Below, piece after piece: positions 895 through 17,417 of a DNA stretch of 21,760 nt; the first letter of the stretch is position 1, and the number at the start of each line of letters is the position of its first letter. The translations under genes were made by a program, and so were the position numbers. A model generated the notes under the pieces. The model searched no databases. It was not told the DNA's origin and saw only the letters and a list, made by a program, of their open reading frames with translations. The DNA is from a virus. The stretch is taken from the IMG/VR virus record IMGVR_UViG_3300009093_000132, positions 1-21,760 of that record; one strand, written 5' to 3'.

Positions 895-1998
895 TTAAAC
901 ACCAAGCATTGAGCAGATGGCGAAGGGCTGGCGAATGATCGCACCCCATGTGCCACCCGTCTGCTTCTGCTTGAAGCTGGACAGACCGCGAACAATCGGA
1001 TGCGCACGCATCTTCTCATTGAACGCGCAATAGCCGGTCTGCTGACCTTCGACACTGTCGCAGATCATCTGAACCAGATTGCCGCCCGCGATGCCCTGCG
1101 GATTGCTCGTGGAGGTCACACCATACTGCACCGCCGTTTCAAAGCGGATGTTCGGGAAGTTGCCCTTGAGCAGCGTCCGCACATTCACATTGAAAGAGTT
1201 GGTGGCAGTCAGCGCAACATCCGATGCCGGGCTCATCGCCAGTGTCACAGCGGACTTGGAGTCAATCAAACCAGAGGACTGATTGACCAGCTGAAGGAAC
1301 ATGGACTGAATGTCATTGAAGATTTCATTCGCAGTGGCCTTCACAACACCACCGTTGATCCACGCAGTACCACCCCAAGCCTTCGTCGCAGGAGTCAGCG
1401 AAGCGGTCAGGTTGGGGTCATTCAGCAAGCCATAGTTCTGCAGGCCAGCAACGCCAAAGAAGTAAGCGAAGTTGCTGAACTTGTTCATGGCCAGAGCAGC
1501 AGCCTGGTCAATCTCGCTCACCCAGCTGATCTTGGCAAGGCCAGCACGCTCCAGTTCCAGCTCACCATATTCCTTGATGACCTGGTAGAGATACGACTGG
1601 CGTTGGGGCCAGTTTGTGTTCGCACCAGCATGGCCGTTCTCAGCGAAGTCGCCATAGCTGGAAACTTCACCGGTGTGTTCCACTGTCGGGAAGAAAGCTG
1701 TCTGGACTGTCCAGTCACCTTTCTTCACTTCACCGAAAATCTGCGCTGCCATATTCGGGGCAAACAGAATTTCGTACACAGCCGGATCGATGTACTGCGT
1801 CAGGTACGCAGGTACACCGGCATTGGGCGCAGTCGCCAGAGCAGGCTGGGCGTCCATTGCGATGTTGATGTTGCTCTTGAAGTTGGCGGGCAAATAAGCC
1901 GTGGCCAACGGATTGATGACACCGCGTGCTTCGAGGTGAGGCGCATCTTCACGATACGCCTGCTCGGCATCACGCAGAGAGTTAAAACGAATGGTCAT
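895..1998 (-). CDS. major capsid protein, DUF2184 family
   Basis: A 367-residue protein whose features match DUF2184 phage major capsid proteins of the HK97 fold. It has a short N-terminal arm (MTIRFNSLRDAEQAYREDAP), a middle region rich in aromatic residues around 'AQIFGEVKKGDWTVQTAFFP' (about residues 85-105), the 'SSYGDFAENGHAGANTNWPQRQ' type segment near 113-134, and a C-terminal 'RGLSSFKQKQTGGTWGAIIRQP' stretch. It is expected to form the icosahedral shell. The leader GAAAGGAAAT at 2004-2013 is a strong ribosome binding site and is shared with the cement gene and the internal scaffold start. The gene follows protease-scaffold and cement genes in the standard order. No obvious cleaved N-terminal delta domain is visible, in keeping with a separate scaffold. 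Confidence 0.9.
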   Translation of the reverse strand: MTIRFNSLRDAEQAYREDAPHLEARGVINPLATAYLPANFKSNINIAMDAQPALATAPNAGVPAYLTQYIDPAVYEILFAPNMAAQIFGEVKKGDWTVQTAFFPTVEHTGEVSSYGDFAENGHAGANTNWPQRQSYLYQVIKEYGELELERAGLAKISWVSEIDQAAALAMNKFSNFAYFFGVAGLQNYGLLNDPNLTASLTPATKAWGGTAWINGGVVKATANEIFNDIQSMFLQLVNQSSGLIDSKSAVTLAMSPASDVALTATNSFNVNVRTLLKGNFPNIRFETAVQYGVTSTSNPQGIAGGNLVQMICDSVEGQQTGYCAFNEKMRAHPIVRGLSSFKQKQTGGTWGAIIRQPFAICSMLGV

Positions 1999-2029: not shown

Positions 2030-2995
2030 TTAGGCGTTGGTGGCGGATTGGATTTTGACCAACTCACCGGCAAGTCCTGTGGACGAGCAGATATACTTGG
2101 TCTCAACATTCACCGCAGCCACGTTGATCGCCTGAGAGCTAACAACGGTGTTGTTGGTGACAACGAAGGTGGAACCAGAACCGCCCGCACCAGTCAGCGC
2201 ATAAGCGATGTAGGTGCCCGCAACAACCGCACCAGAAACCGCCAGCAGGTTGCCGACAGCAAAGGTGCCAGTGGCAGTGCCGATGGTCAATGTACCATAG
2301 GTGCCGGAGACGGTGGTGGAAGCCACAGTCTGTTCACCGATGCTCACATTGTAGCGGCCAACACCATTCGCAGTTTCACCGGCAATGAGCGGTGTGATCT
2401 GGTTCACGATCTGTGTGCCAGTCACAACGTTGGTGCCGGAGATTGTCGCACCCGGATAAACGGAACCGGACGAAACAGCCGAAACCGTCAGCACCGCACC
2501 CGTGATGGAGCCGGTCACCGAGAAGGTGGAGGCAGCAACGGTGGAGCCTGTCGAGGTGGCGCCAGTCTTGGGAGTGCCAGTGGCAGCGAATGTGATTTTG
2601 CCGTCAGCAAAATTCGCATAAGCCTTCTGACCAACCAGAGCCTGTGTGGCACCATCATTGGTGACCCAGAAGTCACCAAAGTTCATCAGTGTCATGTTGA
2701 AGCCAGGCTGAATCAGATTGCCCGAAGCCGCAAGATACTGCGTGATGAGTGCCTGCTGTTCGCGGTGAACAAAGCCGGACGGAAGGCCGGTGCCGAAATT
2801 GTTGACCACAGCCGGGGAGTTGTCGCCATCCATGGGAGCGGACACCCACGCAAAGCGGCCAACTGTGACACCAGCCGGGCCAGCAACCAGACCACCGGGC
2901 CCAGCCACATAAGAGCCACGCGGATTGGTGGAGGCGAAGTCACCCGCAACTGCGGGAGCCTGCACCGTGTTAACTTGATTGGGAAAATCGGCCAT
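2030..2995 (-). CDS. Gp24-like structural cement/decoration protein with inserted tandem repeats
   Basis: A 321-residue virion protein. Residues 1-145 (MADFPNQVNTVQAPAVAGDF..., 'GRFAWV', 'GFVHREQQALI', 'MTLMNFGDFWV') and residues 296-321 (ETKYICSSTGLAGELVKIQS) resemble the phage structural cement family usually encoded just before DUF2184 capsid genes. Between them, about residues 157-290, lies Thr/Ser/Gly/Val-rich sequence made of two diverged copies of a beta-strand repeat ('G..LTV..V.SG.V.PG..ISG' then 'G..Y.VS..QTVAS'). Such repeats are common in phage fibres and surface decorations, so an exposed domain inserted into the capsid-binding core is likely. The start has the strong leader GAAAGGAAAT (3000-3009). 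The family assignment depends on synteny and on the first and last segments; repeat boundaries are approximate. Confidence 0.75.
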   Translation of the reverse strand: MADFPNQVNTVQAPAVAGDFASTNPRGSYVAGPGGLVAGPAGVTVGRFAWVSAPMDGDNSPAVVNNFGTGLPSGFVHREQQALITQYLAASGNLIQPGFNMTLMNFGDFWVTNDGATQALVGQKAYANFADGKITFAATGTPKTGATSTGSTVAASTFSVTGSITGAVLTVSAVSSGSVYPGATISGTNVVTGTQIVNQITPLIAGETANGVGRYNVSIGEQTVASTTVSGTYGTLTIGTATGTFAVGNLLAVSGAVVAGTYIAYALTGAGGSGSTFVVTNNTVVSSQAINVAAVNVETKYICSSTGLAGELVKIQSATNA

Positions 2996-3022
2996 TGTTA
3001 TTTCCTTTCAAAGAGAGTTTGA

Positions 3023-3907
3023 TTAGCCAATCACAGTGATGCGATCAGCATTGGCAAAGCGAGAACTGAAGCCTTCACTATTGCCAGTGGCAGCGTCATT
3101 GGCGATGACGACGGAACGGGCACCGGGCTTGGGCTGTGCTTCCAAAACAGCCTTCAACGCGGACGGATGAATGTCCTTGTGGTTCTTGACACCAAGACCG
3201 TCAAGAGCCGTACGATAAATTTCCTCCGCGCTGTCCAAAGCAATCGGAAGCTTGCCAACCCACTGCGACGCAAACTCACGCGCCTCAGCGGCATCGCGGG
3301 TCTGCTTCATGATCGCATCGCGTTGATCTTTCAACGCAGCATCCATCGTCACTTTGAACTTCGCATCCATCGCCTTGTCCTCACCTTCGGCATTCTTCTT
3401 GGCAGCTTCAGCTTCGTCCTCAGCCTTTTTCTTTTCTTCCTCAGCAGCGGCATCGGCAGCTGCCTTCTTTTCTTCTTCCTCTTTTTCGTCAGCAGCCTTC
3501 TTGTCTTCCGCTTCTTTCTTGGCGCACATCTCGTCATACGACTTCATGTCTTCAGCGGACAGCTTGTTCTTGAGGAAGTCTTTCGGATCAGCCATTTCAT
3601 CAACTCCTGTTTCTGTTTCACTGGCAGGGATGCCAGCATTAGGTTGCATATCTTCGCCTACTTCTTCGCTCTCACATTGATCGAGCATACTCATGATGTC
3701 GGCAAGCGAAGCGTCTTTTGCAAGTTTGGCTTGCGCAGTGATCGCAGAAGCAATGCCGGCTTTTTTGTCCTTAAAATTGTCACTGGTGACTCCGGACAAA
3801 ATTGGAGTCAGGTCAATCTTCGCATCAGCAGCAAGCTTGGGCTTGAGATACACAAGCAAGGCACCGCCCGTCATTGCTGCCTTTCGAGACAGAACTGTCT
3901 TGGGCAT
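3023..3907 (-). CDS. nested scaffold protein from internal start in the protease-scaffold gene
   Basis: Predicted 294-residue product that begins at Met287 of the 580-residue protein, in the same frame (MPKTVLSRKAAMTGGALLVY...). The start is preceded by GAAAGGAAAT (3912-3921) with four bases to the ATG. This ten-base leader also precedes the cement and major capsid genes. The start falls just after the protease hallmark motif, so the nested product contains only the scaffold part. Nested scaffold genes inside protease genes are known in lambda (C and Nu3) and many other phages. Here the nested gene is an inference from the ribosome binding site, the domain boundary and that precedent. Confidence 0.6.
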   Translation of the reverse strand: MPKTVLSRKAAMTGGALLVYLKPKLAADAKIDLTPILSGVTSDNFKDKKAGIASAITAQAKLAKDASLADIMSMLDQCESEEVGEDMQPNAGIPASETETGVDEMADPKDFLKNKLSAEDMKSYDEMCAKKEAEDKKAADEKEEEEKKAAADAAAEEEKKKAEDEAEAAKKNAEGEDKAMDAKFKVTMDAALKDQRDAIMKQTRDAAEAREFASQWVGKLPIALDSAEEIYRTALDGLGVKNHKDIHPSALKAVLEAQPKPGARSVVIANDAATGNSEGFSSRFANADRITVIG

Positions 3908-4765
3908 TATAATTTCCTTTCCAGAGATTTTGGAGTCACCAACCACAACATCTGGGCCAGCACGACCTTCCTCAACCAAAGCAACATGATTGGCGATAAT
4001 GTCCCGCATCACTCCGTCATAGTGCTCACCCTCAAAGGTGCCCGGAGTCATGTCAGCACGATAGCGATAACCACACGACAATTCTTTTTGCTCTTCACTC
4101 TCGATTGCGTCAATGGCCTCTTTCGACCACACCACAAGAGAGTTGGAGAGATAAGGATGATTGTACTTGGCGTCTGTTCCGGTTGAACCAATCACCAAGT
4201 CAGGCTGATGGTCATCAGCATCAACCGCCATGTGCTTGATCAAAAGCGGCACATTGTTGAAGCTGTCGGCTGCCTTCTTCAATTCTTCAGGATCACGCAG
4301 CAACATATACTTGCGATTGAAGTCAAGGCCCATCTCTGCCGCACCAGGAATTTCCCGGCCCCAATAAGGGCAGATATTACCTTTCGAGATGTTGTTGTGA
4401 TCGACATGCAAAAAACCGTCCACCGAATAATGACGGTTGGACTTGTTCAGAGGCATCTTGTCGTGAGCAAACAGCTTGCTCAAACGCAACACACCCTCTT
4501 TGAATTCAGCGTCTTTTGCCTTCTTGGTGGATGCCTTCAGCTTTTTGAGATCATCCTCATACAGCTTTACGTCATCTTCCATTCCTGCGACTTCACGCGC
4601 ACGATGGGGGCTTTTCTTGGCTTCTGCGATCTTGGCCTTAAGTGCCGTAATTTTCGCAGCGATTTGTTCCTCAGTAGCTTCATCTTCTGCCGGAGGATCA
4701 AGGGCCAAGACGGTGCCATCATCGAGTTTTGCTTGCGGCTCAGCGTCACTCCCATAGAGAATCAT
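3023..4765 (-). CDS. DUF2213 prohead protease fused to scaffold domain
   Basis: A 580-residue assembly protein in three parts. Residues 1-95 are a charged, probably coiled-coil N-terminus. Residues about 110-275 are a DUF2213 domain resembling herpesvirus/HK97-type prohead proteases. Candidate catalytic His178 lies in 'NVPLLIKH' and Ser230 in 'QKELSCGY', and the family hallmark 'NHVALVEEGRAGPDV' is at 259-273. Residues 287-580 are an Ala/Lys/Glu-rich scaffold, with an extended charged coiled coil at about 415-460. It should shape the procapsid and then be degraded. The start overlaps the previous stop as ATGA. Two in-frame internal ATGs with good ribosome binding sites (Met287 at 3907, Met391 at 3595) suggest separately made scaffold forms. 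The catalytic residues are inferred by motif analogy. Confidence 0.85.
   Translation of the reverse strand: MILYGSDAEPQAKLDDGTVLALDPPAEDEATEEQIAAKITALKAKIAEAKKSPHRAREVAGMEDDVKLYEDDLKKLKASTKKAKDAEFKEGVLRLSKLFAHDKMPLNKSNRHYSVDGFLHVDHNNISKGNICPYWGREIPGAAEMGLDFNRKYMLLRDPEELKKAADSFNNVPLLIKHMAVDADDHQPDLVIGSTGTDAKYNHPYLSNSLVVWSKEAIDAIESEEQKELSCGYRYRADMTPGTFEGEHYDGVMRDIIANHVALVEEGRAGPDVVVGDSKISGKEIIMPKTVLSRKAAMTGGALLVYLKPKLAADAKIDLTPILSGVTSDNFKDKKAGIASAITAQAKLAKDASLADIMSMLDQCESEEVGEDMQPNAGIPASETETGVDEMADPKDFLKNKLSAEDMKSYDEMCAKKEAEDKKAADEKEEEEKKAAADAAAEEEKKKAEDEAEAAKKNAEGEDKAMDAKFKVTMDAALKDQRDAIMKQTRDAAEAREFASQWVGKLPIALDSAEEIYRTALDGLGVKNHKDIHPSALKAVLEAQPKPGARSVVIANDAATGNSEGFSSRFANADRITVIG
3912..3921 (-). 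promoter_or_regulatory. internal ribosome binding site for nested scaffold
   Basis: GAAAGGAAAT on the minus strand, four bases before the in-frame ATG at 3905-3907. The same ten bases precede the cement start (3000-3009) and the capsid start (2004-2013). Such a leader is not needed for reading through the protease-scaffold gene, so its presence supports initiation here. A second internal candidate, AGGAG at 3604-3608, lies eight bases before the in-frame ATG at 3595. Confidence 0.6.
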
Positions 4766-10544: not shown

Positions 10545-10568
10545 GAAGAAAAGCCCCAACGCGGGGCT
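10545..10568 (-). terminator. rho-independent terminator after the NusG-like gene
   Basis: On the minus strand AGCCCC-GCGTT-GGGGCT (10568-10552) forms a G/C-rich 6-bp hairpin followed by TTTCTTC. The stem includes the first base of the NusG-like gene's TGA stop (10568-10570). It separates the replication unit from the packaging genes. Confidence 0.8.
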
Positions 10569-11071
10569 CACATCATCTTCTGAATCTGGTGGCCTTTGAG
10601 CTCAACTGTCAATTGACGCCCAAAGAATGCAATCGTTGCCTCAACAGCGCCTTTGATCTTGCGAACAAAGGTACCTTTGTGCCCAGTAAATGGACCGCTG
10701 ATGATTCCAAAAATCTCATTCTTGTCAAACCAAGGGAGAACATCATTGCTCTCAACCTTGATCTCAAAATCGCCGTAGCAAAGACGACGTTCAAATTCAT
10801 TCATCCAATTCTGAGGCACAGCAATTGGACGCACCAAATGATTGGGGAGCAATTTGCTCACACCTTGCGTCTCATTGACGCGCGAGAAGTCCTCATCACA
10901 ATCCCAAAGCTTCACAAACACATAACCAGGCAACACAGCGCGGTAATAACCATCGTGTTTGATCTCAGGATACAGGTAAGCAATTCCATTGTTGCGGAGA
11001 TTGGTGAGAGCACGCTTGGTGTCTCCAGCGCGGAGTGCGGCAATGTACCAATTTTGGTTTTCGTCAGCCAC
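10568..11071 (-). CDS. NusG-like transcription elongation/antitermination factor
   Basis: A phage NusG/RfaH-type protein. The NGN domain starts 'NQNWYIAALRAGDTKRAL' and includes 'LPGYVFVKLW' and 'VNETQGVSKLL'. The C-terminal KOW domain is 'FGIISGPFTGHKGTFV' and 'FFGRQLTVELKGHQIQKM'. Such proteins bind RNA polymerase and alter pausing or termination. The frame is open to an ATG at 11179, but NusG proteins begin just before the WY motif and the extra 36 residues are Trp-rich and overlap the nuclease gene. I therefore prefer GTG 11069-11071, giving 167 residues. The ribosome binding site there (GGTGGA) is weak, so ATG 11164 or 11179 remain possible. A terminator follows at once and late genes lie beyond, which suggests a role in late transcription. 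Confidence 0.8.
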   Translation of the reverse strand: MADENQNWYIAALRAGDTKRALTNLRNNGIAYLYPEIKHDGYYRAVLPGYVFVKLWDCDEDFSRVNETQGVSKLLPNHLVRPIAVPQNWMNEFERRLCYGDFEIKVESNDVLPWFDKNEIFGIISGPFTGHKGTFVRKIKGAVEATIAFFGRQLTVELKGHQIQKMM

Positions 11072-11120
11072 CCAAATCCACCCGAAGCGGAACACCCAGT
11101 AGCGTTTCTTGCCCCAAATT

Positions 11121-11555
11121 TCATTTTTTGGAAAGCCCCCTCCACAAAAAATTTCTGACCTCATTGCTGAAGTTGTCATCTTTGGGAAGCATCTGACAAT
11201 TCACACCAACAACAAATTGGTTCAAGCGATAACCATCCAACATGTGTTTTGCATGAAACAGAATATGCCTAATATCTTTCCCGTCCTTTATTCCAACAGA
11301 GAATGCACTCATGTTGCCTGCGATCCCAAACCGCGTGTGCCACGAAATTTGCGCAGGTCGAATTTCCTCAACAGTCAAATTTCCTTTGACAATGGAGCCT
11401 CGTTTGAACTCCAGCGGCAAAATCCAATTTGGTTTGACGATGACCAATTGACAATCTGGATGCCCGGTCCCGCTCCCACGCGCTGGCTCAAAGGTATCAT
11501 ACCAACCATCCCACCGCTTCAGAAAATCTCTTTTGACATCTCGCTCAAGAACCAT
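11121..11555 (-). CDS. PD-(D/E)xK nuclease (resolvase/VRR-NUC-like)
   Basis: A 144-residue small nuclease. The motif set is 'SGTGHPDCQLVIV' (Pro33, Asp34), then 'WILPLEFKRGS' (Glu49, Lys51), then 'IRPAQISWHTR' (Gln69, Trp72, His73). This is the PD-ExK core followed by the Q-x-x-W helix of Holliday junction resolvase and VRR-NUC-like phage nucleases. It probably cuts branched or recombination intermediates before packaging, working with the primase-helicase and polymerase upstream. The ATG has GAGGG about four bases before it. The C-terminus overlaps the longer possible form of the NusG-like gene by 59 bases. The exact subfamily and substrate cannot be told from sequence alone. Confidence 0.8.
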   Translation of the reverse strand: MVLERDVKRDFLKRWDGWYDTFEPARGSGTGHPDCQLVIVKPNWILPLEFKRGSIVKGNLTVEEIRPAQISWHTRFGIAGNMSAFSVGIKDGKDIRHILFHAKHMLDGYRLNQFVVGVNCQMLPKDDNFSNEVRNFLWRGLSKK

Positions 11556-14280: not shown

Positions 14281-14509
14281 CGCGTTTCCCCATCATTTCT
14301 CTTGCGTGATAAGGATCATGCTGCTTGCTGTTCGGACAAGAGCAATCTTTCAACCCAGGGTGGTCCGCATACTTCGCAAGGAATGCATCATAGTGAGCAT
14401 CCGGATCATCTGAATCAGGTGATTCATCAGCCAACCACAATTCGTGTGGGTCCTCACAACCACAATCGAGACACCAAGCCCCAGGCCAACCGCTCCATCT
14501 ATGGTGCAT
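14270..14509 (-). CDS. small Cys-rich, probably zinc-binding protein (79 aa)
   Basis: A 79-residue protein with 'GAWCLDCGCEDP' (Cys13, Cys16, Cys18) and a later 'LKDCSCPNSKQHDPYH' with two more Cys and His residues. These spacings suit a zinc-binding site. The middle is very acidic (ADESPDSDDPDAH). The 'SGWPGAxCxxC' opening is of a kind seen in small phage proteins of unknown role. Its ATG lies 11 bases inside the polymerase gene's end and its stop overlaps the next gene by 11 bases, so it is co-translated with the replication genes. No function can be assigned. Confidence 0.65.
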   Translation of the reverse strand: MHHRWSGWPGAWCLDCGCEDPHELWLADESPDSDDPDAHYDAFLAKYADHPGLKDCSCPNSKQHDPYHAREMMGKRDAE

Positions 14510-17417
14510 CTTCTGCTATGCCTCCCGCTGTCCTGTCTTTGCTGTAGGAATTTATTCCACCACTTTGTTTTGCTTTTGGTCCATCCATCAAGCCGATGTA
14601 CCGGACTGCTTTGACACGTATCATTCGGAAGTCTGCAGGGACCATTCCTTTTATCGCATAAATCGCTTTGCCGGGAAGTCCTCGCTCAACTATTTCGCGT
14701 CCAATTCTCTCATAATCAAATCTGCTGATTTTGCAGAAGATGGTATCAGTGTCATCACTCATAAACAGATTGAGTGCTTGAGTTGGTGATTTGACTTTGT
14801 AGCCGCGTTTGGCAACAACCTGCGGTTCATTTTCATCGCGCGGTTTGATTTGTTTTGCTACAGCGAAAATCATCACCTCATAATCAAAGCCTTTGACCTG
14901 AACATCAATCACTGATGTCACCGGAGAAAGAATGTTGGCTGTTGCAGGGTCAGGCAGCACTTCTTTAATTTTATCACGCACAGGCCACAAACTGTCGATT
15001 GATGTCACTGGGTTCTCCAAAAGTTTTGCAGCGCGAGACGGTAACTTATCTCCCCTTTGACGCGCTGACATGATTGAACTCACCATCTTTGGGCCGATGC
15101 CCTTCACATTTTGAACTGGGCCCAACAACACTCGCTTCCCGTCAATGATTGCTGGTTGCCAGCGATTGGTTGACTTGTCTTTGTTCACAGGAACATAATC
15201 AATGCCTTCCTTGTGCATCTCGCGCAGCAATGTTATCTGCTTCACCGGATCAGTCTCGTGCTGAAGCGTCGCAGCAGCAAACTCAAATGGATGATGAGCC
15301 TTGAGGTAACAACACCAGTAAGATACAATCCCGTAAGCAACAGAATGGCTCCGATTAAAAGCCCATGCGCCATATGCGCACAAATCGTCCCAAACCTTGA
15401 CAAGAGTTTCATCGGGTATTGCTCCGTTGAACTTCTTTCTTGCCCCCGCTTTAAAGCGATCACCATACTGATCAAAAAACTCTTTGCCGAGAGACTTGGA
15501 CATTGCCTTGCGCAACATCGTCACATCATCCCAACTCAGGTCACCAATTTCGCGTCCTATGGACATCACTTGTTCTTGGTAAGCGACAATGCCAAGCGTA
15601 TTGCGAAGATGAGGCTCAAACTCTTTGTGTGGATAGACAGTAGGGCTAAGGCCATTCTTACGCTTAACCCATTCGTTTGTGCCTCCTGAAGCCAGCGGTC
15701 CAGGTCTTGCAAGAGCGGTTGTAGCGATAATATCTTCAATCTCATTTGTTCGTATTTGTCCGGCAATGGATTGGAGGGCAACACCGTTGTACTGGAAGAT
15801 GCCTGCAAACTTTCCGTTGTTGATGATGTCGAAGGCTGCTTGATCATCAGGTGGTACCTTTTCGAGATGGTCCATCGGCAGACCGGCCATTTGAAGTGTC
15901 TCTTCAAACACACTCAGCTGAGTAAGTCCAAGAGCATCGATTTTGAGCAGGTTAAGTTCCTCTGCGTCTTTCTTGTCGCATTGAGTAGCGCCTGTTCGAC
16001 TATCAATAGCAATGTAATCGACAACAGGACGTTCAGTAAGGACGATGCCTGCTGCATGCTGCGATGAGTGTCTTGGATGCCCTTCCATAGCTTGTGCAAT
16101 TTTGAGCTCAGGGTATTCAAGAATGAGTGCCTTTCCGGCTTCTGTATCATTGAATGTGTCCTCCATAACCTGCAATGCACGAGAGTCACCACCGCTTCGC
16201 TCAATCAACGAGTCAAGCACCTTGTCTGTTCGCCAGCGAGGGATGTCCAACGCAGCCCCTGCCTCAGCAATTGCGGAGCGTGGCTTATAAAGAGCCACTG
16301 TGCCGAGACGGGCAACACGCTCCTTTCCATACTTGGCTTCCATGTACTCGAACACCAGATGACGACGCTCATCAGAGAAGTCCAAGTCAATATCTGGAAG
16401 GTCTGTGCGGGTTGTATCAATGAAGCGTTCAAAGATGAGATTGTAGGGGATTGGATCAATTGTTGTTATTTGGAGAAGATAACAAACAAGAGAACCGCAG
16501 CTAGAACCACGAGCAGGACCACAAATCATTTCCTTTCTTGCCCAGCGCATCACATCGCTGATGATATAGAAATAATCCTCATACTGCTTCTCAGCAATGA
16601 GCGACAATTCCCGGTCCAGCCGGGCAGCATAAACCGGCCTGGTCAGATCACAACCAACAATCTTAGCCCCTTCAATGCACAATTCCCGAAGGCTCATTGG
16701 CTTCTCAGGATGGAGCAATTCACCTTGGCGAAGGGTTGCCTTGGAAAAGCCCATCAGCATATTCCGATTGGCAACAGCCATCCCCAACTCAGCCGGATCG
16801 CACCACTGGAGAGCCTCCAGCCATTCCGTATCTGTCAAAATGTATTGCGGATAGGTCTGGGTGCTGGAATTGCGGCCGCACAGAACCTCGTACAGCCCTT
16901 TGTCTTCCGGACGCGCGAAGTGATTGTCAGAACAGGCAATGAACTTGTGCCCTGCTTCCTTCGCCTTCTTGAAAAGTCCGCGAGGGGTGGACGGGGCCAG
17001 GGACACAAAGACATCGTCCCGGAGAGGCACTTTGTCCAAGAGGGTCCGATGCCCAGTCATCTTGAAAACCCCTTCCGCTGCCCATGCCTGTTCGTAGGAA
17101 AGCAAAGGCTCATAGCGGAATTGGTTGGTGGCCTTCTCAACCAGCAAATTCAGATATTTCAGATCGTCAATCGCCCAGAAGGTCCAATGATCAATTGCGG
17201 GCTTTTTCGCTGACAATGAATCAGTGACGCCAAGTTCAACTCCATAGACCGGACGCAGCCCGGCCTTCTTGGCTTCCTTCCTCCACTTCACATAACCAAA
17301 TGTTGATGCGCGATCTGAAATTGGGGCAGCATCCCACCCCAACTCCTTCACCCGGCTCATCACATTCTCAACTGATCCAACAGCAGTGCGAAAGCTATAG
17401 CCTGTTCTTATTCTCAT
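14499..17417 (-). CDS. dnaE: family C DNA polymerase (DNA polymerase III alpha subunit)
   Basis: A 972-residue phage replicase. The polymerase core is clear: 'CGPARGSSCGSLVCYLLQIT' (299-318), catalytic 'LPDIDLDFSDERR' (Asp342, Asp344) and 'LLKIDALGL' (Asp494), equivalent to the three Asp of E. coli DnaE, followed by 'ALARPGPLASGG' and 'AYQEQVMSI'. A helix-hairpin-helix 'VKGIGPKMVSSIM' and an OB-like C-terminal region follow. The N-terminal PHP domain is recognisable ('GLRPVYGVELGV') but the usual HxHxxYS metal ligands read 'RIRTGYS', so it is probably inactive. It is about 190 residues shorter than E. coli DnaE, mainly at the C-terminus. It overlaps the upstream gene by ATGA and has a separate DnaQ-like exonuclease nearby. 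Confidence 0.95.
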   Translation of the reverse strand: MRIRTGYSFRTAVGSVENVMSRVKELGWDAAPISDRASTFGYVKWRKEAKKAGLRPVYGVELGVTDSLSAKKPAIDHWTFWAIDDLKYLNLLVEKATNQFRYEPLLSYEQAWAAEGVFKMTGHRTLLDKVPLRDDVFVSLAPSTPRGLFKKAKEAGHKFIACSDNHFARPEDKGLYEVLCGRNSSTQTYPQYILTDTEWLEALQWCDPAELGMAVANRNMLMGFSKATLRQGELLHPEKPMSLRELCIEGAKIVGCDLTRPVYAARLDRELSLIAEKQYEDYFYIISDVMRWARKEMICGPARGSSCGSLVCYLLQITTIDPIPYNLIFERFIDTTRTDLPDIDLDFSDERRHLVFEYMEAKYGKERVARLGTVALYKPRSAIAEAGAALDIPRWRTDKVLDSLIERSGGDSRALQVMEDTFNDTEAGKALILEYPELKIAQAMEGHPRHSSQHAAGIVLTERPVVDYIAIDSRTGATQCDKKDAEELNLLKIDALGLTQLSVFEETLQMAGLPMDHLEKVPPDDQAAFDIINNGKFAGIFQYNGVALQSIAGQIRTNEIEDIIATTALARPGPLASGGTNEWVKRKNGLSPTVYPHKEFEPHLRNTLGIVAYQEQVMSIGREIGDLSWDDVTMLRKAMSKSLGKEFFDQYGDRFKAGARKKFNGAIPDETLVKVWDDLCAYGAWAFNRSHSVAYGIVSYWCCYLKAHHPFEFAAATLQHETDPVKQITLLREMHKEGIDYVPVNKDKSTNRWQPAIIDGKRVLLGPVQNVKGIGPKMVSSIMSARQRGDKLPSRAAKLLENPVTSIDSLWPVRDKIKEVLPDPATANILSPVTSVIDVQVKGFDYEVMIFAVAKQIKPRDENEPQVVAKRGYKVKSPTQALNLFMSDDTDTIFCKISRFDYERIGREIVERGLPGKAIYAIKGMVPADFRMIRVKAVRYIGLMDGPKAKQSGGINSYSKDRTAGGIAEDAP

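What the first reader, a model, noticed from the sequence alone, without database searches (positions are those of the whole stretch)
3023..3921. Nested scaffold gene marked by the same ten-base leader as the capsid genes
The protease-scaffold gene has an in-frame ATG at 3907 (Met287) with GAAAGGAAAT four bases upstream. The identical leader stands before the cement (3000-3009) and capsid (2004-2013) starts, and a close variant before the gene at 837. The internal start lies about 14 residues after the protease motif, so a 294-residue scaffold would be made separately and probably in excess. A second internal start with AGGAG is at 3595 (Met391). A shared strong leader may set stoichiometry of shell, cement and scaffold.
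Basis: partly seen in the sequence, partly recalled or inferred. Interest (0 to 1): 0.65.

Follow-up and report, generated by a model that had tools for sequence, protein, structure and literature searches.

The report
Hidden scaffold gene inside protease gene
In this virus of bacteria, one gene carries two starts: the first makes the enzyme that trims the shell during assembly, and a second, conserved start inside it very probably makes the shell's temporary scaffold as a separate protein; the same layout recurs in many related phages, including the classic laboratory phage T1, where the scaffold gene was never marked.

Summary
The 580-aa DUF2213 gene (4765..3023, minus strand) has an in-frame ATG at 3907 (Met287), with GAAAGGAAAT four bases upstream. 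The same 10-mer precedes the cement and capsid starts (4 exact copies, 0.1 expected).

The internal start is strongly supported. An in-frame ATG/GTG with a Shine-Dalgarno (SD) core occurs in the linker of 87/93 dereplicated homologues (synonymous-codon null 39±4) and in 88/100 members of a second, more distant set (null 43±4). Where Met is replaced by Val, the codon is GTG 14/14 times (background 27%). In three phages the protease and scaffold are two genes, split at this point, each with its own SD; their fused sisters keep the start.

The protease domain has the T4 gp21/herpesvirus assemblin fold, with an invariant His-Ser-His. The downstream part in Pa193 is the segment already seen inside the capsid by cryo-EM.

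Not supported: the exact shared leader is found in only 2 of 30 genomes tested, and the second start at 3595 is not conserved.

Verdict: a nested protease/scaffold gene like lambda C/Nu3 or herpesvirus UL26/UL26.5. I found no description of it for this family, which includes T1. No expression data exist here.

The parts
3023..4765 (-). Full-length DUF2213 protease-scaffold fusion, 580 aa
   Evidence: ORF; PF09979 E 2e-48; phrog_2229 head maturation protease E 2e-108 over residues 108-577
3974..4435 (-). Assemblin-fold protease domain (residues 111-264), invariant His178, Ser230, His260
   Evidence: AlphaFold2 model, high confidence here; T4 gp21 Z 11.1, herpesvirus proteases Z 6-8; His/Ser/His invariant in 47 + 11 + 3 sequences
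3908..3973 (-). Variable, disordered linker (residues 265-286) that carries the internal SD
   Evidence: pLDDT under 50 at 270-287; poorly conserved in alignment A3
3912..3921 (-). Internal ribosome-binding leader GAAAGGAAAT
   Evidence: exact match; SD here in 87/93 and 88/100 homologues
3905..3907 (-). Internal start codon ATG (Met287)
   Evidence: ATG or GTG in the linker of nearly all homologues; Val always GTG, 14/14
3023..3907 (-). Nested scaffold gene, 294 aa, all-helical, acidic
   Evidence: model helical from residue 294; stand-alone homologous genes in L139, L302, L307; Pa193 counterpart seen inside the capsid (PMC11042391)
3821..3832 (-). A-x-D-[SA] site 1 of the scaffold (AADA, residues 312-315): candidate processing site
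   Evidence: A312 and D314 in 45/47
3710..3721 (-). A-x-D-[SA] site 2 (AKDA, residues 349-352)
   Evidence: A349 45/47, D351 46/47
3362..3373 (-). A-x-D-[SA] site 3 (AMDA, residues 465-468)
   Evidence: A465, D467 46/47; M466 47/47
3230..3241 (-). A-x-D-[SA] site 4 (ALDS, residues 509-512)
   Evidence: A509 45/47, D511 47/47
3092..3103 (-). A-x-D-[SA] site 5 (ANDA, residues 555-558)
   Evidence: A555 42/47, D557 47/47
2030..2995 (-). Cement (decoration) protein with leader GAAAGGAAAT at 3000-3009
   Evidence: phrog_2122 E 6e-44, Pfam XM1_gp53_minor_capsid E 3e-23
895..1998 (-). Major capsid protein with leader at 2004-2013
   Evidence: phrog_264 E 3e-69; Pa193 gp26 (9b40) E 9e-22
1849..1860 (-). 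A-x-D-[SA] site in the capsid protein N-terminus (AMDA, residues 47-50): candidate cleavage site
   Evidence: 27/29 capsid proteins have it in the first 75 residues, 3.3 expected; aligns with Pa193 SAMDSN, whose modelled chain begins at residue 66

Best explanation
The gene is a nested protease/scaffold pair. Initiation at 4765 gives a 580-residue fusion: an assemblin-fold maturation protease (residues about 111-264), a flexible linker and a helical scaffold. Initiation at the internal ATG 3907, from an SD encoded in the linker, gives the 294-residue scaffold alone. Inferred steps: the free scaffold is the main scaffold of the procapsid; a few fusion molecules co-assemble with it through the common scaffold part and so bring the protease inside; after assembly the protease cuts the scaffold, and the N-terminal arm of the capsid protein, at A-x-D-[S/A] sites. 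Shown by sequence and comparison: the domain layout, the fold, the conserved internal SD plus start, the two-gene relatives and the recurrent motif. Not shown: the protein products, their ratio and the cleavage.
For: 87/93 homologues have an in-frame SD + ATG/GTG in the linker; synonymous-codon null 39.2±4.0, other reading frames 3 and 0, other internal ATGs with SD 8.8%. A second, more distant set, selected by later scans with alignments A4 and A5: 88/100, null 42.9±4.4, other frames 9 and 2. Val junctions are GTG 14/14 against 161/587, while a Met/Val site elsewhere in the scaffold uses all four Val codons (20 of 43 GTG). SD energy equals that of the cement and capsid genes (-6.35, -6.74, -6.26). 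L139, L302 and L307 have separate protease and scaffold genes, homologous to the fused sisters L303-L306 that keep the nested start; both L139 proteins match the one fused family phrog_16985. T1 gene ST50 has it at Met209, and its nested product matches the 162-residue family phrog_36941 end to end. Fold of T4 gp21 and herpesvirus assemblin. Pa193 gp24 residues 286-326, downstream of its Met195, lie inside the capsid (PMC11042391).
Against: No ribosome profiling, N-terminal peptide or gel evidence was available. This window's own SD is moderate (-4.9 kcal/mol). The Lys/Glu-rich linker gives an SD in about 42% of synonymous reshuffles. Escherichia phage ST32 (Chaseviridae) lacks an internal ATG/GTG with SD at this place, and 12 of 100 in the distant set miss the strict rule, most of these with a Met but a weaker SD. 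Scaffold function rests on gene order, helicity and the Pa193 structure, whose authors call it 'putative'.
Confidence: 0.88

Rival explanations
1. Only the fusion is made; free scaffold arises by autocleavage in the linker, and the Met is conserved as part of a cleavage site (as in phage P2 gpO, a protease-scaffold without a known nested product).
For: The linker is disordered, and assemblin proteases do cut their own release site (known for herpesviruses, from general knowledge).
Against: Met changes to Val only through GTG (14/14); the SD exceeds the synonymous null in two sets; the linker residues are not conserved; split relatives have a true gene start here.
Confidence: 0.06
2. The SD-like sequence is a by-product of Lys/Glu/Gly-rich coding, or a pause site, and is not used for initiation.
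For: About 42% of synonymous reshuffles contain such a signal; acidic stretches elsewhere also create SD + ATG by chance, in 56 of 93 genes.
Against: 87/93 and 88/100 observed; spacing peaks at 5-9 bases, close to the 6-9 of the cement and capsid genes; start codon in frame; Val only as GTG.
Confidence: 0.05
3. The shared ten-base leader is a specific regulatory element that sets shell, cement and scaffold ratios (the first reader's reading; compatible with the best explanation, as an addition to it).
For: Three head genes carry it exactly; L008 shares it for two genes and 9 of 10 bases for the third; within-genome leaders are slightly more alike than between genomes (5.6 against 4.7 bases).
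Against: Only 2 of 30 genomes share it; the rest use different ordinary SDs of similar strength.
Confidence: 0.08

Closest known systems
Phage lambda C / Nu3 (also Mu I / Z)
   Same: Protease at the N-terminus, scaffold as the C-terminal part, scaffold also made from an in-frame internal start (general knowledge).
   Different: Lambda C is a ClpP/S49-type protease (general knowledge); here the protease has the assemblin fold, and no lambda C or Nu3 family appeared in the profile scans.
Herpesvirus UL26 / UL26.5
   Same: Assemblin-fold protease fused to a scaffold with the scaffold also made alone; His-Ser-His invariant here as in herpesvirus assemblin (triad of herpesviruses from general knowledge).
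   Different: Herpesviruses use a separate nested transcript (general knowledge); here a bacterial SD inside the gene. No kinship was tested beyond fold.
Phage T4 gp21 prohead protease
   Same: Best fold match, Z 11.1, 133 residues, rmsd 2.9.
   Different: In T4 the scaffold gp22 is a separate gene (general knowledge).
Pseudomonas phage Pa193 gp24, 'putative scaffolding protein' (PDB 9b40; PMC11042391)
   Same: Same family (E 2e-19); residues 286-326 seen at the five-fold vertices inside the capsid; internal ATG 195 with SD.
   Different: The authors treat it as one 478-residue scaffold; the terms protease and internal start do not occur in the paper.
Phage P2 gpO
   Same: Protease-scaffold fusion (general knowledge).
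   Different: No nested scaffold product is known for it (general knowledge; not tested here).

Membership tests
Nested phage protease/scaffold genes (lambda C/Nu3 type) | Protease domain N-terminal and scaffold-like helical region C-terminal in one reading frame | tested here: met
Nested phage protease/scaffold genes (lambda C/Nu3 type) | In-frame internal start with its own SD at the head of the scaffold | tested here: met
   (sequence signal; use not shown)
Nested phage protease/scaffold genes (lambda C/Nu3 type) | Scaffold made as a separate product, in excess | not testable with these tools
   needs ribosome profiling or N-terminal mass spectrometry
Nested phage protease/scaffold genes (lambda C/Nu3 type) | C-terminal part acts inside the procapsid | tested here: inconclusive
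   Pa193 homologue segment lies inside the capsid (PMC11042391); not shown for this phage
DUF2213 (PF09979) head maturation proteases | Profile match above the curated cut-off and head-gene neighbourhood | tested here: met
   164.9 bits against 22; portal, MuF, cement, capsid around it
Assemblin-fold prohead proteases (T4 gp21, herpesvirus) | Fold | tested here: met
   T4 gp21 Z 11.1, several herpesvirus proteases Z 6-8 over residues 113-282; Foldseek alone E 0.02-0.06
Assemblin-fold prohead proteases (T4 gp21, herpesvirus) | Catalytic Ser and His in the active-site geometry | tested here: inconclusive
   His178, Ser230, His260 invariant in all 61 aligned sequences; geometry and activity not checked

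The most novel reading that the evidence does not exclude
The herpesvirus arrangement, an assemblin protease fused to a scaffold with the scaffold also made alone, is an ancient feature of the shared assemblin lineage and survives in DUF2213 phages, rather than having arisen separately in herpesviruses.
Probability: 0.12. Interest if true: 0.85.

Novelty: new member of a known kind. Interest (0 to 1): 0.6.

Why it matters
[quoted passage not shown] The group includes the laboratory phage T1, so the claim can be tested directly in E. coli. It also shows, in phages, the same protease fold and the same kind of gene arrangement as in herpesviruses, and gives a candidate cleavage motif shared by scaffold and capsid protein.

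Tried and rejected
Shared leader as a special element: only 2 of 30 genomes. Second internal start at 3595: no Met in that column in the other 46 sequences, and such SD + ATG signals arise often in the acidic coding. A second Met/Val site before A-M-D in the scaffold: Val codons are mixed, so this is protein conservation and not a start. Fourth leader copy at 16528: inside the polymerase gene, overlaps an ATG with no spacing, judged incidental. Single-sequence scan of viral contigs found nothing. The genome of the 38-kb XM1 phage could not be located, so its gene 52 was not read; the link to XM1 rests on the Pfam family XM1_gp53 and gene order. PV464115 and MT161387, suspected to be natural splits, proved to carry opposite-strand annotations instead. 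Paper searches for a nested scaffold in this family found none; only open-licence papers are held.

Full report
What is there. The window is a 21.8-kb virus record with its head genes on the minus strand. Going downstream: large terminase, portal, a MuF-type head protein, the 580-residue DUF2213 gene (4765..3023), cement protein and major capsid protein. The capsid protein is related to that of Pseudomonas phage Pa193 and to the chain of entry 8frs, and the cement protein to Vibrio phage XM1 gp53.

Check of the observation. Codon 287 of the DUF2213 gene is an ATG at 3907 with GAAAGGAAAT four bases upstream. The same 10-mer precedes the cement and capsid starts. Four exact copies occur against 0.10 expected; the fourth (16528-16537) lies in the polymerase gene and overlaps an ATG without spacing. 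The variant at 837 is within chance as a motif match.

Conservation test. From the loci fetched up to I took 93 dereplicated homologues (the window included) and asked whether the 4-25 codons after the last protease motif hold an in-frame ATG/GTG with a GGAG, GAGG or AGGA core at normal spacing. 87 of 93 do. Resampling synonymous codons gives 39.2±4.0 (maximum 49 in 300). The two other reading frames give 3 and 0. Windows elsewhere in the same genes give 8.9%, and other internal ATGs carry an SD in 8.8% of cases. I then fetched 160 more loci with alignments of distant members (T1-like, Vibrio, Rhizobium, Psychrobacter, Firmicutes and Pbunavirus types). With the linker window widened to 0-44 codons, 88 of 100 pass against 42.9±4.4 (maximum 60 in 200), other frames 9 and 2. 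The window was widened because distant linkers are longer, so the two counts are not the identical test, but each has its own null.

The codon test. In one subgroup the position holds valine. The codon is GTG in 14 of 14, whereas 161 of 587 other valines in the same genes are GTG. These sequences are related, so 14 is not 14 independent events. As a control, a second Met/Val-alternating position later in the scaffold uses GTG in 20 of 43 and all other valine codons too. So the junction keeps a start codon, while the second site keeps a residue.

Natural two-gene versions. In Agathobaculum phage AB434P2 (L139) and contigs L302 and L307 the protease gene ends about 30 residues after the last motif, and a separate gene of 212-226 codons starts 13-14 bases later behind AAGGAGG. 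Sister contigs L303-L306 have one fused gene with the internal ATG behind GAAAGGAAA-like leaders or close variants. Their nested products are homologous to the separate genes (best E 3e-8). Both AB434P2 proteins match opposite ends of one fused family, phrog_16985. In T1 the nested product (ST50 from Met209, GAGGACAAGCAA-ATG) matches the 162-residue family phrog_36941 from end to end.

Structure. The AlphaFold2 model (47 sequences, mean pLDDT 82) has a confident beta domain at 111-264, a disordered stretch at 270-287 and helices from 294. The best structural matches of the beta domain are T4 gp21 (Z 11.1) and then herpesvirus proteases (Z 6-8); Foldseek alone was weak (E 0.02-0.06). His178, Ser230 and His260 are invariant in all 61 aligned sequences, near and far, the residue set of herpesvirus assemblin (general knowledge). 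The long helices at 30-100 match many unrelated coiled coils and were ignored.

Scaffold role. In Pa193, residues 286-326 of the homologue gp24 were built as a helix-turn-helix pentamer at the five-fold vertices inside the capsid and called a putative 478-residue scaffold; the authors could not say whether it is cleaved (PMC11042391). Its internal ATG is codon 195 with an SD, so the visible piece lies in the nested product. The XM1 paper states that its scaffold gene is not yet identified (PMC10457771).

Candidate processing sites. The motif A-x-D-[SA] occurs at 1.77 per 100 residues in the scaffold part against 0.40 after shuffling, and at background in the protease (0.14 against 0.12). Five copies are nearly invariant. 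The N-terminus of the capsid protein carries it in 27 of 29 cases, 3.3 expected, and Pa193's capsid chain is modelled from just after it. Cleavage there is an inference.

Leader and stoichiometry. The exact shared leader is found only here and in L008. SD strength is alike at nested, cement and capsid starts across the family (the capsid starts were chosen partly by SD, so their figure leans high). In this window the nested SD and ATG lie mostly unpaired in the predicted fold, while the protease start is in a hairpin. That fits more scaffold than protease, but is weak evidence.

Exceptions. Escherichia phage ST32 lacks the signal. Xanthomonas phiXaf18 has only a GTG with GGAG, at codon 191. 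Some distant members keep a Met with a weak SD.

Conclusion. The internal start is very probably real and general in the DUF2213 family. The kind of arrangement is known (lambda C/Nu3, herpesvirus UL26/UL26.5), but I found no description of it for this family, and it makes a concrete, testable proposal for the missing scaffold of T1-like, Pbunavirus-like and XM1-like heads.

Noticed in passing
window 895-1998 and 3023-3907; L002-L122: A-x-D-[SA] recurs at five near-invariant places in the scaffold and at the capsid protein N-terminus: a candidate cleavage motif of the DUF2213 protease.
   Followed up: partly
L139:1444-2687, L302, L307: Protease and scaffold as two separate genes in these phages, beside fused sisters L303-L306: a natural split or fusion at the nested start.
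   Followed up: yes
PMC8770471 (Burkholderia cenocepacia BCAM1066): A Tn-seq paper calls DUF2213 a putative essential bacterial domain; on the present evidence it is a phage head protease domain, so a prophage effect should be considered.
   Followed up: no
window 2030-2500: The cement protein has about 165 extra C-terminal residues beyond its family profile (phrog_2122 matches only residues 4-156), rich in Thr/Ser/Gly/Val.
   Followed up: no
window 10568-11179: A protein that by eye resembles NusG/RfaH-type antiterminators lies upstream of the head genes; not tested.
   Followed up: no
window 14499-17417: The phage encodes its own DNA polymerase III alpha-like protein of 972 aa (by eye; not tested).
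   Followed up: no
L137 (Escherichia phage ST32): A lineage whose DUF2213 gene lacks an internal ATG/GTG with SD at the junction; how it makes scaffold is unknown.
   Followed up: partly
L308 and other Drexlerviridae records: The T1-like gene is annotated variously as major head subunit precursor, scaffolding protein or protease; where ribosome-binding sites are marked (L308) the internal one is not.
   Followed up: partly
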